A DNA stretch of 35,307 nt from Microcoleus sp. GA_180221_E-2-1-MAG-45_12. Lineage in GTDB: Bacteria; Cyanobacteriota; Cyanobacteriia; Cyanobacteriales; JAAUUE01. The position numbers and the translations under genes were made by a program. Positions 7,078 through 22,407 of the stretch are shown in pieces. Location of the stretch: assembly GCA_020692245.1 (NCBI GenBank), contig JAIMKT010000014.1:25905-61211 (forward strand), written 5' to 3'. The notes under the pieces were generated by a model. It saw only the letters and a list, made by a program, of their open reading frames with translations. It was not told the DNA's origin and searched no databases. Within the stretch, counting starts at the first letter, position 1; each line of letters begins with the position of its first letter.

Positions 7078-8232
7078 GTGAATCAACGGGATCAATTAGG
7101 GCAATCAAGACAATATTTTGCGACGGTGGCACGGGGGTTGGAGAGTCTGGCAGCCCAGGAGTTGGAGGGCTTGGGGGCTGAGTCTGTGCCTGAGGGGTTT
7201 TGTGGGGTGAGTTTTCGGGGCGATCGATCCCTGCTCTACCGAGTTAACCTGTGGGCAAGATTACCCTTTAGGATTTTGATGCAAATTCACCAATTTCCCT
7301 GTCTTAATACCCAAGCTCTCTATCGAGGAATTCAAACCATTGATTGGCAACAGTACCTCACTCCGAAACATAGTCTGGCGGTTACGGCTACTGGGGGAAA
7401 TAGCCAACTCAACCATACCCACTTCACAGCCTTGCAGGTGAAAAATGCCATCGTCGATCAACAGCAACGGGCGTGGGGCGATCGATCTCCGGTGGATACC
7501 CAAGAGCCAGATCTACGAATTAACGTATTTATCGATAAAGAAGATATTTGTACTGTCAGCTTAGATAGTTCTGGTAGTAGCCTCCATCGGCGGGGTTATC
7601 GTCCAGCAGTGGGACAGGCTCCCCTTAAGGAATCCTTAGCGGCGGCGTTGGTACAACTATCGGGCTGGTCATCGGATTTACCTTTTCTAGACCCCCTCTG
7701 TGGTTCGGGAACTCTGCCCCTCGAAGCCGCTCTCCAAGCCCTAGATATGGCTCCGGGATTATTTCGAGAACGCTTTGGCTTTGAAACTTGGACAGATTTT
7801 GATCCTCAACTACTCGATCGACTCCTAGAGGAAGCGTCTACTAAGCAAAAATTCCTGTTGCCTGCGCCAATTCTGGGGAGTGATATAGACTCTAGGGTAA
7901 TTAAGCAAGCGATTACCAACGCTGAGAACTGTGGGGTCGATCGCCAAGTCCAGTTTACCTGTACCGAACTTGCTCACCTTGAAGCTCCAGCAACTCAGGG
8001 ATTTTTGGTGTGTAATCCACCCTACGGAGAACGCATTGGTCGAGATCAAGAATTGGGACAGCTTTATAAACTCTTGGGAGATGTGATGAAACGCAGGTTT
8101 AAGGGCTGGACAGCTTTTGTTTTGAGCGGTAATCGAGAACTCACGAAGGCGATCGGGCTGAAACCCAGTCAACAAACCCAAATTTTTAATGGTAGTCTTC
8201 CCTGCCAGTTCCTCAAGTACGAATTGTATTAA
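7078..8232 (+). CDS. THUMP-domain class I SAM-dependent RNA methyltransferase (RlmL/YpsC-like)
   Basis: This 384-residue protein resembles the RlmL half of E. coli RlmKL and Bacillus YpsC, enzymes that methylate guanine N2 in 23S rRNA using S-adenosylmethionine. Residues about 12-160 fit the ferredoxin-like plus THUMP RNA-binding region (YFATVARGLESLAAQEL at the start; LRINVFIDKEDICTVSLD later). The methyltransferase domain has the SAM-binding motif FLDPLCGSGTLPLEA (about 203-217) and the catalytic NPPYGERIG (about 313). The GTG at 7078 is the only good start before the domain begins. The exact methylated base cannot be told from sequence. It is a single gene, with a possible promoter in the 190 nt upstream. 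Confidence 0.9.
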   Translation: MNQRDQLGQSRQYFATVARGLESLAAQELEGLGAESVPEGFCGVSFRGDRSLLYRVNLWARLPFRILMQIHQFPCLNTQALYRGIQTIDWQQYLTPKHSLAVTATGGNSQLNHTHFTALQVKNAIVDQQQRAWGDRSPVDTQEPDLRINVFIDKEDICTVSLDSSGSSLHRRGYRPAVGQAPLKESLAAALVQLSGWSSDLPFLDPLCGSGTLPLEAALQALDMAPGLFRERFGFETWTDFDPQLLDRLLEEASTKQKFLLPAPILGSDIDSRVIKQAITNAENCGVDRQVQFTCTELAHLEAPATQGFLVCNPPYGERIGRDQELGQLYKLLGDVMKRRFKGWTAFVLSGNRELTKAIGLKPSQQTQIFNGSLPCQFLKYELY

Positions 8233-8282: not shown

Positions 8283-8438
8283 TCAGCTATAGGATCAGGG
8301 ATAAAAATTTGTTAAGGTTGTTAAGCATCATAATTTTGCAAATATTTATAGTGAATCTATTTAGTTAATCTCACCTCCTATGGCAACAGAAATAATTGAA
8401 CTTTTATCGAGTCGGGAAATTGCCAAAATGCGATCGGC
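8283..8438 (+). repeat. Left copy of 156-bp direct repeat (map promoter region plus first ~20 codons)
   Basis: This stretch matches 9998-10153 at 152 of 156 positions; the four differences are all transitions. It covers about 97 bp upstream of map and the first 59 bases of the map coding sequence. The methyltransferase 3' flank runs into it without a break, so this copy is probably at the ancestral position. The copies are 1,715 bp apart. Confidence 0.95.
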
Positions 8439-8469
8439 TCTAAAGAGCGTGGGATTCTTCCTTCATTGA
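8380..8469 (+). pseudogene. map: Truncated copy of map (first 20 codons, then foreign sequence)
   Basis: ATG 8380 starts a frame whose first 20 codons equal those of the intact map gene at 10095 (MATEIIELLSSREIAKMRSA). After GCGATCGGC at 8438 the sequence departs from map and enters the GCTCTAAAGAGC hairpin. The frame adds nine unrelated residues and stops at 8467-8469. No metal-binding residue is included, so the product cannot be an aminopeptidase. Because the upstream 97 bp are also copied, this stub may still be transcribed and its promoter could reach the next gene. Confidence 0.9.
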
Positions 8470-8501
8470 TACAACTTGCCCTGATTGGATTACTCCAATC
8501 A
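8437..8501 (-). mobile_element. Probable IS200/IS605-type right-end remnant (hairpins; possible omega-RNA relic)
   Basis: Two hairpins lie just at the edge of the truncated map copy: GCTCT-AA-AGAGC (8437-8448) and TGATTGGA-TTAC-TCCAATCA (8482-8501, perfect 8-bp stem). A short subterminal hairpin next to a junction, downstream of a tnpB reading the same way (the fragment at 9698-9994 is on the minus strand), is the arrangement expected of an IS200/IS605 right end, where the TnpB guide RNA is also made. Assignment rests on position and structure, not on a database match. I could not identify the left end. Confidence 0.5.
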
Positions 8502-8610
8502 AAGTAGAGGTCACATCATCAAGAGATTTTTGGAGGTACAGAAATTTAAAGAAATATTCAGAATGTTATATGGCTTGTTTCTGTTATCGTAGTGTGATAA
8601 TTCTATTACT

Positions 8611-8642
8611 ATTGTACATATCTATCCCCATTGCACATATCT
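8611..8642 (+). repeat. Pair of 13-bp direct repeats upstream of the zinc-ribbon gene
   Basis: ATTGTACATATCT (8611-8623) and ATTGCACATATCT (8630-8642) differ at one base and are spaced 19 bp apart. They lie 51-82 bp before the ATG at 8693. They could be a repeated operator for a regulator, but no partner is visible. Confidence 0.5.
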
Positions 8643-8692
8643 GAACTCATTCGGGTATTAGCGTCACAAAAAAATTATGGAGGAATATAGTC

Positions 8693-9682
8693 ATGAGTAC
8701 TTTAATACAGTGTCTAAATTGTGGTAAATCAGTAAGTTCGGCGCAATCCTTATGTATTCACTGTAAAGCTAAGCGTTGTCGTATTTGTAACCAAAAATTT
8801 GATAAATCTTCTGGTAGGTTAGTAGATGTTTGTCGTGAATGTTCCCCAGCTATTGAGTCAGCTAAATTACCACAGGACTCTTCTTTTTCTTACCAAATGA
8901 AATGTAGTCTTTGTGGACATGATAATAAATTATCAAGCAACGACAGTTCCAGTCCTTTTCAAAGGCAAAAGCCATACTCTTCCAAGAGTAAACTCTCTCC
9001 CAACTATGGAGTGAAGCAAGAGGAAAAATATCTGAACAGAGAATACGGTTTTCTATCAAAAAGGGCTGCTAGCAACAAACTTTTTGGTACATTAGGGCTG
9101 GGATCAGATGGACAAAATAACCACTATCGAAAACATCCTAATCAGGATATTAAAAAATTCCTTGGAGATTCTATCCAACGAGTATATTTTTCCTGCTCTA
9201 GTTGTGGTCATCATGAATATAGTAGCGAATTAGTTTTTCCTGTTAAATTTAAAGAGTTTAAATGTGCTTTTTGTAGAGAATATGGAAAGTTAGAAGCGAT
9301 GGATGCTTTAGTATATCATTGTCAAAGTAGGAAGGATGTTCTGTATGAATATTATGAAGAAATCCAATTAGCGCATAGAAGCTGCTTGAAATACCGCAAA
9401 CACTTAACAAATTATGAAGAAACTTACTCATACTCAATAAACAAACAAAATGTTTCTCGTGAAATTTGGTCTATTGAACAAGTTTTAAACCAAGCTGATT
9501 TAATTGAGCCAATAATAAAAAATCGGGTTAAAATAAGCAATTTTCTCGGTTCAAAAGAATTGCTTTTTTTATTGATTTTAATCATCATTCTTATAATTAT
9601 TGTCGGGGGTTGGATAGGAGTTTTAATTTCTTGTCTCGTAGTCGCTGTTTACATTCTGTTAATGACATCTAATTTGGTATAG
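8693..9682 (+). CDS. Orphan multi-zinc-ribbon protein with two C-terminal membrane helices
   Basis: I do not recognise this 329-residue protein. It has seven CxxC knuckles: C7/C10, C21/C24, C29/C32, C47/C50, C71/C74, C168/C171 and C191/C194. The last pair of pairs is flanked by SCGHHEY and looks like a separate zinc ribbon. A serine- and lysine-rich linker spans about 80-155. Residues about 287-325 are almost entirely Leu, Ile and Val and should form one or two membrane helices, leaving the ribbons in the cytoplasm. GGAGG at 8679-8683, nine bases before ATG 8693, is one of the best Shine-Dalgarno sequences in the window. The gene is AT-rich, lacks the HIP1-like octamers of its neighbours and sits inside the insertion, so recent transfer is likely. 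Function unknown. Confidence 0.85.
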   Translation: MSTLIQCLNCGKSVSSAQSLCIHCKAKRCRICNQKFDKSSGRLVDVCRECSPAIESAKLPQDSSFSYQMKCSLCGHDNKLSSNDSSSPFQRQKPYSSKSKLSPNYGVKQEEKYLNREYGFLSKRAASNKLFGTLGLGSDGQNNHYRKHPNQDIKKFLGDSIQRVYFSCSSCGHHEYSSELVFPVKFKEFKCAFCREYGKLEAMDALVYHCQSRKDVLYEYYEEIQLAHRSCLKYRKHLTNYEETYSYSINKQNVSREIWSIEQVLNQADLIEPIIKNRVKISNFLGSKELLFLLILIIILIIIVGGWIGVLISCLVVAVYILLMTSNLV

Positions 9683-9697
9683 ATTGTACTTGATAAA

Positions 9698-9994
9698 TTA
9701 CAGGAAAAGGACTAATTGGACAGTTCTGATAGTCCGGTAGGTAGGTTCAATAATTTTATGTCGCTCTACTTGAATACAAAACTGAGCATAGTAACCATCA
9801 GCCCGTCTGACTAGCCTCACCCGCTTAATTTGCTCAGGCTGGTAAAAGTTCAGGTCACGTGTTCCTTTCATTTTCAATCTGCCAATCCCGTATTTGTCGG
9901 TAAAGGTGAGAGATTTTCTATCAGGAGCTAGTTTCCATCCAGAGGTTTTGGACTTTACTGACCTATAATCTTTCTGAAATTGAGGATATCCTTC
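9698..9994 (-). pseudogene. tnpB: Internal fragment of IS200/IS605-family TnpB
   Basis: The minus strand encodes 98 residues that read like the middle of a cyanobacterial TnpB (RNA-guided nuclease of IS200/IS605 elements), with YPQFQKDYRSVKSKTSGWKL, FTDKYGIGRLKMKGTRDL and IKRVRLVRRADGYYAQFC. Similarity ends after IEPTYRTI, just where the first RuvC catalytic motif (GxDxG) should follow; nine unrelated residues and a stop come instead. The N-terminal half is also missing, because the frame meets a stop at the junction with the second map copy (9995-9997). No catalytic residue remains, so it is dead. It faces the zinc-ribbon gene convergently with 15 bp between the stops. Confidence 0.85.
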
Positions 9995-9997
9995 TCA

Positions 9998-10153
9998 TCG
10001 GCTATAGGATTAGGGATAAAAATTTGTTAAGGTTGTTAGGCATCATAATTTTGCAAATATTTATAGTGAATCTATTTAGTTAATCTCACCTCCTATGGCA
10101 ACAGAAATAATTGAACTTTTATCGAGTCGGGAAATTGCCAAGATGCGATCGGC
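9998..10153 (+). repeat. Right copy of 156-bp direct repeat (upstream region and start of intact map)
   Basis: This is the second copy of the segment at 8283-8438 and carries the upstream region and start codon of the intact map. On its left it directly abuts the TnpB fragment, so position 9997/9998 is an insertion junction. Continuity of the map coding sequence beyond 10153 shows that this copy keeps map complete. Confidence 0.95.
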
Positions 10154-10889
10154 CGGGGAGCTTGCCTATGAACTCCTCAATTACCTAGAACCGATGGTCA
10201 AGCCCGGTGTTAATACCCTAGCCCTCAATGATGCCGCCGAGCGCTGGACTCAGCAACACGGAGCTAAAAGTGCACCATTGGGTTATCACGGCGGGGGACA
10301 GGTTCCCTTCCCCAAATCCATCTGTACCAGCGTGAATGAAGTCATTTGTCACGGTATCCCCAATGCCCGACAGATTCTCCGAGATGGGGATATTATCAAC
10401 ATTGATGTGACTGTGATCGTCGATGGCTATCATGGGGACACTTCCCGCACCTTTTTTGTGGGGACTCCTTCGCCCGTTGCCAAGAAACTGGTAGAAGTTA
10501 CCAAGGAATGTTTGTACCGAGGGATTGCCGCCGTGAAACCCAACGCCCGCATTGGAGATATTGGCGCAGCCATTCAAGAGTATGCTGAACCCCACGGCTT
10601 TTCTGTCGTCCGGGATTTTGTTGGTCATGGGATTAATCGGATTTTCCATGCGCCGCCCCAGATTCCCCACTACGGCGATCGAGGCAAGGGGAAAAAACTC
10701 CGCCCCGGCATGGTGTTTACCATTGAACCCATGATTAATGAGGGGACTTGGGAAGTAGAACTGCAATCTGACCAGTGGACAGCCCTGACCAAAGACCGGA
10801 AACTTTCTGCCCAATTTGAACACACGATCGCCGTCACCGAATCGGGAGTAGAAATTTTGACTCTGCCCCTCCACGCCTCCACTCACTAA
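10095..10889 (+). CDS. map: Type I methionine aminopeptidase
   Basis: This enzyme removes the initiator methionine from new proteins. The five metal ligands of the pita-bread fold are visible: D104 (in NIDVTV), D115 (in HGDTSR), H178 (in VGHGIN), E211 (in FTIEPM) and E242 (in FEHT). The substrate-site histidine in CHGIPN is also present. At 264 residues it is the usual length for the bacterial type I enzyme. The ATG at 10095 is confirmed by an identical start in the truncated copy at 8380 and by TCACCTCCT just before it. Its upstream 97 bp are duplicated in the insertion. fabI follows after 48 bp on the same strand, so the two may be co-transcribed. Confidence 0.97.
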   Translation: MATEIIELLSSREIAKMRSAGELAYELLNYLEPMVKPGVNTLALNDAAERWTQQHGAKSAPLGYHGGGQVPFPKSICTSVNEVICHGIPNARQILRDGDIINIDVTVIVDGYHGDTSRTFFVGTPSPVAKKLVEVTKECLYRGIAAVKPNARIGDIGAAIQEYAEPHGFSVVRDFVGHGINRIFHAPPQIPHYGDRGKGKKLRPGMVFTIEPMINEGTWEVELQSDQWTALTKDRKLSAQFEHTIAVTESGVEILTLPLHASTH

Positions 10890-16264: not shown

Positions 16265-17740
16265 ATGCAATTAGAAGAAATAGTTAACCAGAGTTTGACT
16301 GTAGATATTAAGACAAGCAAAACTGATCAAGATTTCGTCAAGCAAATTCAACAAAGGTTAAGTCTATTTCGCCTCTATCCCGGTGGTCGATGGATTGATG
16401 GTTTGTATGGCAATAGAACCGAATCTGCCCTGCTGACCTTTGGGACTACCTTGGGTTTAAATAGCTTTAATTTGGGGAAGATCGATCGCACCTTTGCCCA
16501 GAGTTTATTAAATACTAATCCCGTAGATTTTGCCCTAAGTTTCGCCAAGAATCGCCCCCGGATTTTACAAGATTTTCAGCAACTAACTGTCGGCTTTGAT
16601 TCCCAACGTTTACCGATTTTAGACATTGGCTATCTGAAATCTCCCTATCCCTTAGATATTAATTCCTACAGTCTCCGGCTCAAGGAAAAACCAGACTATC
16701 AAGAAGTGATTTCTCTGGGGGCAACGGCGAAATTAAATAACCCCATTCGATCGATAACTTTTAATCCCTATCCTGCCATTGGACAATTGCCAACTATTGA
16801 TAATAATGGTTTGAATTTTCTCCATAGCGATATTACTGAAGCCTGTGTAGTGGTGGGCAGTTTTGTGGAGGGAGAGGTGCGGACTCGCTGGCTAGGAAAA
16901 TCTGCCATGACTCCGGTAGAACTTTGGAGTAGCACCAAGTTTATTAGTCTTTTATATGCTATTTCTCAAATAAATTCTAAGTTTATTAATTGTGATGTGG
17001 ATAACTGTGTAATTAGAAACCCAAATAATGGGGCAACCTATCCATTTTTTGATGTAGTTAGTGATATTTTCACCTACGATACCAAGATTTCTACTTCTAA
17101 TTCTTTGGCAGCAATGTTTAAACGATTTAATTCTTGGGTGGGGTTAGAAGTTTGGCTAAAAAAAATGACAGGGAATAATAATCTTCAATTTTCGGGTCGG
17201 TATGGGGAACCGCCGTTTATTAATACGCCGGAGTTGGTCGATCGCAAGCTCAATCAAACGGTATTAAAATCTGTAGCCGAGGGTAATATTGGCAGTAATT
17301 CTGTCTCTACCTATGACCTGACCCGAATGATCACTAAACTTGGTTGGCATTATCACATTCCAGCCAATGCGCGGCTGCCGGGGGCACAGTGGGATAGTTT
17401 AGAGAGTTTGACCCGGGCGATGGGGAAAGATACGGCGAGACATCTAGATTTTGCGATCGATAAATTAGCTCTCACCAGTGTAATTAGTTCCCCAGTTGTC
17501 CTCTCAAAAATGGGTTTTGGCCGCAGCACCATCAGAAACCGTAGCGAGCTAGTTTATACGGGCTTAATTCGCTTTATTGACAAACGCACGAAACCCGGCA
17601 AACTCAGAACCATGGCGCTCACTCTCCGGGCTGCCAAAGGGCTGAACAATGAAGATGAAGAAGCAAGGCAGCTAGATGCCCGCATGGGGGCAGAAATCAC
17701 AGAAATTCTCAGGCGTTTAGTCACAGAAGAGCTAGGATAA
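16265..17740 (+). CDS. Peptidoglycan-binding and serine beta-lactamase-like protein
   Basis: I recognise no named family for this 491-residue protein, but the parts are suggestive. Residues about 24-85 resemble a peptidoglycan-binding type 1 domain (DGLYGNRTESALLTF). The rest, about 185-440, has marks of the beta-lactamase/penicillin-binding fold: an SxxK motif (SSTK, 222-225) at the start of a helix, an S-T-Y-D-L-T-R-M segment as found before the omega region of class A enzymes, and KMGFG (from 415) where KTG is expected. The KTG threonine is replaced by Met. No signal peptide is visible, which is odd for a wall enzyme. It ends with a 9-bp convergent overlap with the MFS gene. Confidence 0.7.
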   Translation: MQLEEIVNQSLTVDIKTSKTDQDFVKQIQQRLSLFRLYPGGRWIDGLYGNRTESALLTFGTTLGLNSFNLGKIDRTFAQSLLNTNPVDFALSFAKNRPRILQDFQQLTVGFDSQRLPILDIGYLKSPYPLDINSYSLRLKEKPDYQEVISLGATAKLNNPIRSITFNPYPAIGQLPTIDNNGLNFLHSDITEACVVVGSFVEGEVRTRWLGKSAMTPVELWSSTKFISLLYAISQINSKFINCDVDNCVIRNPNNGATYPFFDVVSDIFTYDTKISTSNSLAAMFKRFNSWVGLEVWLKKMTGNNNLQFSGRYGEPPFINTPELVDRKLNQTVLKSVAEGNIGSNSVSTYDLTRMITKLGWHYHIPANARLPGAQWDSLESLTRAMGKDTARHLDFAIDKLALTSVISSPVVLSKMGFGRSTIRNRSELVYTGLIRFIDKRTKPGKLRTMALTLRAAKGLNNEDEEARQLDARMGAEITEILRRLVTEELG

Positions 17741-18994
17741 TGGCTCGATTACTTTGCTGGGGGACGATCGCTTCAGCAGCAAACTTGCCACAATAATACC
17801 AAAAATTGCCAGCCCCGCCATGGGATAAAAAACGTAGGTGTAATTGCCAAACAAATCACGAATTTGTCCAGTAACCAGAGTCCCAATCAAAGCACCCACC
17901 CCGTAGGCTGTAAACACAATCCCATAATTTTGAGCATACTGATTGGGGTTGAAAAATTGCAAAGTAATTGTGGGAGCCATGGCTAACCAGCCGCCAAGAT
18001 TGAACCAATAAAGACAAAAGGCGATGAGGTAGGTGGCGACCTGTCCCTTTTGAGCGCCGATCATCATTATGGAGGCAATCAAGATCAAAGTGTAGGAAGC
18101 GATCGCTACATAGCAGGGTTTCAGGCGATCGCACAGCCAGCCAAATAGAGGGCGACTCAGACCATTGAACAAGGCAAATAGCGAAACACTGCTAGCAGCT
18201 AAAGCCGGATTAATTTCAATCACTTCCTGCCCCACAGAACTAGAAATGCCGATCGCACTCAAGCCCACCAAACTCGCGATCGCATAACAAATCCATAATC
18301 CATAAAAAGCTCGATTTTTTAAGATTTGTGGGGGGTAGTTAATAGCTTGAGCCGGTGCTGAACTAGTTAAAGTTTGTCGGGGCTGCCAGTCCTTGGGGGG
18401 TGGTTTGAGCAGGGTGGCGATCGCCAGAATAATGATCATAAAAGCCAGACCCAAAATCCGCAAGGTGGGCTGAATCCCATAAGAGGCAATTAATTGATTA
18501 GCGAGGGGAGCAGTGAGCAAAGGAGAAAGCCCAAAACCGATAATTGTCAACCCTACCGCCAAGCCCCGTTTATCGGGAAACCATCTCGCCACCACTGCCA
18601 TCGGTACACCATAGGCGATCCCCACCCCTGTCCCTGTTAATACCCCATAGGAGAGGATCATCATCTCAACGTTACTTGCCAAGCTAGAGAGAATGTATCC
18701 CAAGCCAACGATAATTCCGCCAATAGCAGCGATCGGGCGCAGACCAAGACGGGGCATATAAAAACCCGCGATCGGCATTAGGAGAGCATAAAAAACTAGG
18801 GCTACAGTGTAGGGAAATAGGCTCTGGGTGGCGGTAATTCCCAACTCATCTTCCAGGGGTTTTCTAAATACACTCCAAGTATATAAATTTCCCAAACAGA
18901 GCAGAATTATCATTCCCAAGGGAATCAGCAGCCATCGCCCTGTTTCGGCGGGGATTCCCAATACAGTTACCTTTGAAGGATCGTTGTCAAGCAT
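17732..18994 (-). CDS. MFS transporter, OFA (oxalate/formate antiporter-like) type
   Basis: The 420-residue protein has twelve predicted membrane helices. The MFS features include LYTWSVFRKPLE in the first helix region, GVLTGTGVGIAYG in helix 4 and the loop WFPDKRGLAVGLTIIGFGLSP, all as in the OFA group (oxalate/formate or monocarboxylate transporters). The GWLCDRLKP loop marks the second half. The substrate cannot be deduced. ATG 18994 gives a short hydrophilic N-terminus before helix 1. A partial, broken relative of this gene lies beyond the neighbouring ATPase at 22284-22407. The 3' end overlaps the convergent beta-lactamase-like gene by 9 bp. Confidence 0.92.
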   Translation of the reverse strand: MLDNDPSKVTVLGIPAETGRWLLIPLGMIILLCLGNLYTWSVFRKPLEDELGITATQSLFPYTVALVFYALLMPIAGFYMPRLGLRPIAAIGGIIVGLGYILSSLASNVEMMILSYGVLTGTGVGIAYGVPMAVVARWFPDKRGLAVGLTIIGFGLSPLLTAPLANQLIASYGIQPTLRILGLAFMIIILAIATLLKPPPKDWQPRQTLTSSAPAQAINYPPQILKNRAFYGLWICYAIASLVGLSAIGISSSVGQEVIEINPALAASSVSLFALFNGLSRPLFGWLCDRLKPCYVAIASYTLILIASIMMIGAQKGQVATYLIAFCLYWFNLGGWLAMAPTITLQFFNPNQYAQNYGIVFTAYGVGALIGTLVTGQIRDLFGNYTYVFYPMAGLAIFGIIVASLLLKRSSPSKVIEPLS

Positions 18995-22283: not shown

Positions 22284-22407
22284 GCGAGGGGAGCAGTGAG
22301 CAAGGGAGAAAGCCCAAAACCGATAATTGTCAACCCTACCGCCAAGCCCCGTTTATCGGGAAACCATAGGCGATCCCTACTCCAGTCCCCGAAAGTACAC
22401 CAAAAGT
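22284..22407 (-). pseudogene. Broken mosaic fragment of an OFA-type MFS gene
   Basis: Positions 22284-22367 match 18501-18584 of the intact MFS gene at 83 of 84 bases and encode the same FPDKRGLAVGLTIIGFGLSP region. Next to it, 22368-22407 encodes GVLSGTGVGIAYG, the same protein region as helix 4 but with only about two thirds nucleotide identity. The 28 bases between these parts in the intact gene (18585-18612) are missing; the break lies at a repeated ACCAT, and the loss shifts the frame. All other parts of the gene are gone. The fragment flanks the ATPase on the side opposite to the intact MFS gene. Confidence 0.9.

What the first reader, a model, noticed from the sequence alone, without database searches (positions are those of the whole stretch)
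8283..10153. Insertion that duplicates and restores the start of map
A 1,715-bp unit (about 8439-10153) splits the ancestral map gene after codon 20, yet its right end carries the missing upstream 97 bp and the first 59 coding bases, so map is whole again. The 156-bp copies match at 152 positions. A transposon target duplication of 156 bp would be far too long; single-crossover integration of a circle carrying a map 5' segment, or an element that carries such a segment as an attachment module, would give this pattern. Gene-end-restoring integration into an essential gene is known for tRNA genes and some coding genes, but I know of none for map with this cargo.
Basis: partly seen in the sequence, partly recalled or inferred. 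Interest (0 to 1): 0.75.

Follow-up and report, generated by a model that had tools for sequence, protein, structure and literature searches.

The report
Insertion-sequence debris beside duplicated gene start
In one cyanobacterial genome, 1.6 kb of broken mobile-DNA debris plus one unknown gene was pasted into a methionine-aminopeptidase gene together with a second copy of the gene's start, so the gene still reads; it looks like a one-off recombination accident rather than a new kind of mobile element.

Summary
The 156-bp direct repeat is real: 8283-8438 and 9998-10153, four mismatches, 1715 bp apart. Map is whole from 10095. The congener G001 and 101 other testable map loci lack a second map start, so the insertion is private to this genome as far as could be tested. 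At all four mismatches the left copy matches the congener and the right copy differs, and conserved upstream sequence extends further (to 8270) on the left copy. So the left copy is the resident start and the right copy belongs to the inserted 1715 bp. The insert is not a self-contained element. It is a tnpB gene (IS200/IS605 type) with both IS ends missing: RE is cut inside its hairpin, LE and codons 1-94 are absent, and the middle is replaced by AT-rich DNA with one orphan ORF (329 aa, CxxC knuckles, hydrophobic C-terminus). It has no integrase and no second example. Most likely route: single-crossover integration of a circularised fragment carrying a map 5' segment; an E. coli study produced 109-950 bp duplications by that route. 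Homology-facilitated illegitimate recombination and template-switch duplication remain rivals.

The parts
7078..8232 (+). RlmL/Trm14-like RNA methyltransferase gene, left neighbour
   Evidence: NCBIfam NF008748 E 1.4e-114, below the curated cut-off; adjacent to map only in this genome among loci examined
8283..8438 (+). Left (resident) copy of map start: 97 bp upstream plus 59 coding bases, truncated
   Evidence: Direct repeat D1; agrees with congener G001 at all four mismatches, and homology to G001 extends left to 8270
8439..8524 (-). 3' end of tnpB with stop codon; RE lacks its last ~16 bp, cut at the hairpin loop
   Evidence: 93% to L024 3071-2987; five other copies continue past this point through the stem arm CCCACG; hairpin -8.3 kcal/mol, z -4, when complete and lost at this junction
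8525..9740 (.). AT-rich segment (33% G+C) replacing ~595 bp of tnpB
   Evidence: Collinearity with intact tnpB copy L024; G+C
8693..9682 (+). Orphan ORF, 329 aa, seven CxxC knuckles, hydrophobic C-terminus
   Evidence: knuckles; no convincing relative
9666..9697 (+). Possible remnant of an ISAs1-like IS end, overlapping the last codons of the orphan ORF
   Evidence: ~91% over 30-32 bp to copies in G002, G024, G025; transposase beside these copies has DDE_Tnp_1_assoc/DDE_Tnp_1
9741..9993 (-). tnpB fragment, codons ~95-180
   Evidence: 87% to L024 2391-2139; listed with 1 TGA and 1 TAA
9994..9997 (.). Junction bases between the tnpB fragment and the right copy
9998..10153 (+). Right copy of map start, continuous with the functional gene; differs from G001 at all four mismatches
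10095..10889 (+). map, type I methionine aminopeptidase, intact
   Evidence: TIGR00500 E 2.5e-102, above cut-off

Best explanation
A one-off integration of IS debris. A DNA fragment carrying a map 5' segment (-97 to codon 20) next to a gutted tnpB/orphan-ORF segment circularised, or was already circular, and integrated by one homologous crossover in the map start. The product is resident start - 1559 bp - second start - map, with map kept whole by the second start. A crossover in the 102-bp perfectly identical tract (8325-8426) would suffice. Shown: the duplication, the left copy as resident, the composite nature of the insert, and the absence of other cases in the loci tested. Inferred: the circle, the donor and the crossover.
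For: Left copy resident, right copy carrying the four changes. Both outer junctions lack appreciable shared sequence, as expected if they were made when donor pieces were joined rather than by homologous exchange. The insert lacks both IS ends, so transposition did not place it in its present form. In E. coli, 56 of 60 unusual integrants gave the PCR product of a duplicated homologous locus, 109-950 bp in the 14 sequenced, ascribed to a single crossover with a circle that had lost part of its homology (PMC3240628). No Ku gene was found, which disfavours Ku-dependent end joining; ComEC is present.
Against: No donor or circle was found. It is a single event. Only one congener is held, so the four changes are polarised on a single outgroup and 4:0 is weak statistically. 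A one-sided crossover of a linear donor, or a template switch, gives the same final sequence.
Confidence: 0.5

Rival explanations
1. Homology-facilitated illegitimate recombination: linear DNA from a strain with the tnpB/orphan segment just upstream of map recombined homologously within map on the right and joined illegitimately at codon 20 on the left.
For: All four changes are in the right copy, which would then be donor DNA; ComEC present; 3 of 4 HFIR joints in E. coli had no homology. Map's upstream neighbour differs between the two congeners, so different upstream neighbours of map do occur.
Against: In E. coli the duplicating outcome was ascribed to the circle route (56 of 60, against 4 of 60 HFIR), and the HFIR clones there had deletions. 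No donor-like arrangement found.
Confidence: 0.25
2. Tandem duplication with templated filler: a replication fork left map at codon 20, copied a decayed tnpB locus, and returned at -97; the RE hairpin may have marked the switch point.
For: Left junction lies at the loop of the RE hairpin; one event explains both junctions; junctions show little or no shared sequence.
Against: The source locus should remain in the genome, but the only other same-subfamily tnpB (C57) is intact and lacks the orphan segment; four substitutions in fresh synthesis are many. The assembly is about 95% complete, so a missing source is possible.
Confidence: 0.15
3. A site-specific mobile element that carries the map start as attachment module, restoring the gene on entry.
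For: The gene is restored exactly in frame.
Against: No integrase, no complete ends, one case only in 103 testable map loci, and orphan cargo.
Confidence: 0.04
4. Assembly artefact: map is uninterrupted and 8439-10153 is a separate 1715-bp circle or strain variant joined through the 156-bp repeat.
For: A short-read graph can take either path through the repeat; coverage and reads are not available here (inference).
Against: Mismatches at positions 3, 14, 42 and 145 of the repeat let reads of about 105 bases or more phase it; both outer junctions lack overlap that an assembler could misuse.
Confidence: 0.06

Closest known systems
Partial locus duplication by single crossover of a recircularised molecule (E. 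coli pJA2/lacZ, PMC3240628)
   Same: Foreign DNA flanked by a direct duplication of part of the homologous locus, 109-950 bp there, 156 bp here
   Different: Laboratory plasmid with selection there; natural event with unknown donor here, and no circle observed
Homology-facilitated illegitimate recombination
   Same: Would leave one illegitimate joint next to foreign DNA and one homologous joint
   Different: The four E. coli HFIR clones had deletions at the locus rather than a duplication
IS200/IS605-family elements (TnpB subgroup)
   Same: tnpB sequence and part of the RE hairpin in the insert
   Different: Both termini incomplete, tnpB gutted; the family inserts without target duplication (general knowledge)
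Integrative elements that replace the end of a target gene (tRNA genes, prfC; from general knowledge)
   Same: Target gene is restored by element-borne sequence
   Different: No integrase, no att core shown, no second case

Membership tests
IS200/IS605-type insertion sequence | TnpB-family gene | tested here: met
   Fragments 87-93% to the C57 tnpB, which matches guided_TnpB NF040570; only fragments remain
IS200/IS605-type insertion sequence | Complete LE and RE with subterminal hairpins | tested here: not met
   RE cut in hairpin, LE and codons 1-94 absent
IS200/IS605-type insertion sequence | No target duplication | tested here: not met
   156-bp flanking duplication
Integrase-driven gene-end-restoring element | Encodes a site-specific recombinase | tested here: not met
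   Only one intact ORF of size in the insert, with no recombinase match
Integrase-driven gene-end-restoring element | Recurs at the same site with different cargo | tested here: not met
   None of the other testable map loci carries a second map start; the only congener has none
Single-crossover (Campbell-type) integration | Foreign DNA flanked by direct repeats of the homologous segment | tested here: met
Single-crossover (Campbell-type) integration | Circular donor carrying that segment | not testable with these tools
   No strain collection or reads; no match to the orphan ORF in phages, plasmids or viral contigs

The most novel reading that the evidence does not exclude
The 1715-bp unit is a small excisable circle that lives by homologous single crossover at the map start, carrying a map 5' segment so that its entry keeps map working while its orphan membrane/zinc-knuckle gene gains a copy of the map promoter region.
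Probability: 0.04. Interest if true: 0.6.

Novelty: new member of a known kind. Interest (0 to 1): 0.25.

Why it matters
It is a natural example of a gene surviving an insertion because the incoming DNA brought its own copy of the interrupted start, a signature I know mainly from laboratory integrants. It also shows how an orphan ORF can land downstream of a copied promoter region. It does not point to a new mobile element.

Tried and rejected
Clean IS605 insertion or unequal crossover between two IS copies: rejected because neither IS end is present. Gene-restoring integrase element: no integrase, no second case. Relatives of the orphan ORF: none in 149 relatives, 390 class members, phages, plasmids or viral contigs, nor in a GTDB pattern scan; the few hits at E 4.5e-4 to 0.003 are short and unconvincing. 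Structure of the orphan from one sequence: pLDDT 46, unusable. RNA families: only a match far below the family's gathering score. Paper search for integrative elements at methionine aminopeptidase found nothing relevant. One search was an empty accession probe and carries no information.

Full report
Observation. The 156-bp direct repeat is present as described: 8283-8438 and 9998-10153, 152 of 156 identical, start-to-start 1715 bp. It is the longest direct repeat in the window. The left copy holds 97 bp of upstream sequence and 59 coding bases of map and then leaves the gene. The right copy runs into an intact 264-codon map, which is a type I methionine aminopeptidase (TIGR00500). The foreign DNA proper is 8439-9997.

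Which copy is resident. In the only congener held (G001) map is uninterrupted. Its upstream sequence agrees with the left copy back to 8270, 13 bp further than with the right copy, which stops at 9998. At the four mismatches G001 has the left-copy base each time. So the left copy is the resident start, and the right copy either arrived with the insert or was changed when the insert formed. With one outgroup and four sites this is suggestive, not proof.

What the insert is. The ends of the insert are pieces of one tnpB gene on the minus strand, in order, matching an intact copy elsewhere in the same genome (G000:C57, L024): 8439-8524 is the 3' end with its stop, 9741-9993 is codons ~95-180. That copy is a guided-TnpB family protein. 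Neither IS end is complete. Five other copies continue past the left junction with CCCACG and further bases that close a hairpin, whereas here the sequence switches to map at the loop; the complete hairpin folds well and the hybrid does not. On the other side the first 94 codons and LE are missing. The middle ~595 bp of tnpB is replaced by 1216 bp of 33% G+C DNA holding one intact ORF of 329 aa with G+C at third positions of 0.25, against 0.53 for map. Thirty-two bases at 9666-9697, overlapping the end of that ORF, resemble the end of ISAs1-like elements in three other genomes; this last point is suggestive only.

The orphan ORF has seven CxxC knuckles and a hydrophobic C-terminus. No convincing relative was found, and a single-sequence structure was unusable. 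Its function is open; a membrane-bound zinc-knuckle protein is the only inference I make.

Is it recurrent? Map start regions were compared with their own surroundings in 110 loci (30 from the genome search, 80 named GTDB loci; the window's own locus and the congener's are among them, and some species may occur in both sets); 103 had at least 400 bases upstream, so the reach differs between loci. None showed a second map start; the hits found were short repeats within the upstream region or a 19-bp match. The methyltransferase is not beside map in any of the other loci, though short loci limit that test. In G001 the two lie on different contigs with different neighbours, a HepT/nucleotidyltransferase pair before map and a CHAT gene after the methyltransferase. 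So the neighbourhood itself was rearranged near -110 of map, which is an observation without an explanation here.

Mechanism. Transposition is excluded as the last step because the termini are missing. The pattern of foreign DNA between two copies of part of a homologous locus is what single-crossover integration of a circle gives. In E. coli conjugation, 56 of 60 unusual integrants gave the PCR product diagnostic of such a duplication; the 14 sequenced had 109-950 bp duplicated, which the authors ascribe to circles that had lost part of their homology (PMC3240628). Here the crossover could lie in the 102-bp identical tract 8325-8426. One-sided homologous plus illegitimate joining gives the same final sequence if a donor strain carried the segment upstream of map. 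Template switching is possible but the expected source locus was not found. Ku was not found, which argues mildly against end joining; ComEC is present, which permits DNA uptake but does not show it.

Selection. The genome holds two further type I MetAP-like genes at 68% and 44% identity, so survival of the event need not have required that map be restored; the restoration may or may not have been selected.

Verdict. The attachment-module half is not supported. I regard this as a private, one-off rearrangement of a known kind.

Noticed in passing
18501-18584 and 22284-22367 (also 18600-18647 / 22355-22402): An 84-bp piece of the MFS transporter gene (17732-18994) recurs at 99% about 3.8 kb away, beyond the cation-ATPase gene, next to a 79% piece: an apparent MFS paralogue remnant, perhaps patched by gene conversion.
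   Followed up: partly
L025 4142-4787: In congener G001 a nucleotidyltransferase/HepT-like pair lies directly upstream of map where this genome has the methyltransferase.
   Followed up: partly
L026 2447-3514: In G001 the methyltransferase is followed by a convergent CHAT-domain gene overlapping its stop codon.
   Followed up: partly
L027, L028, L029, L030: G001 carries several degraded fragments of the same tnpB family, with a short repeat block near the 3' end.
   Followed up: partly
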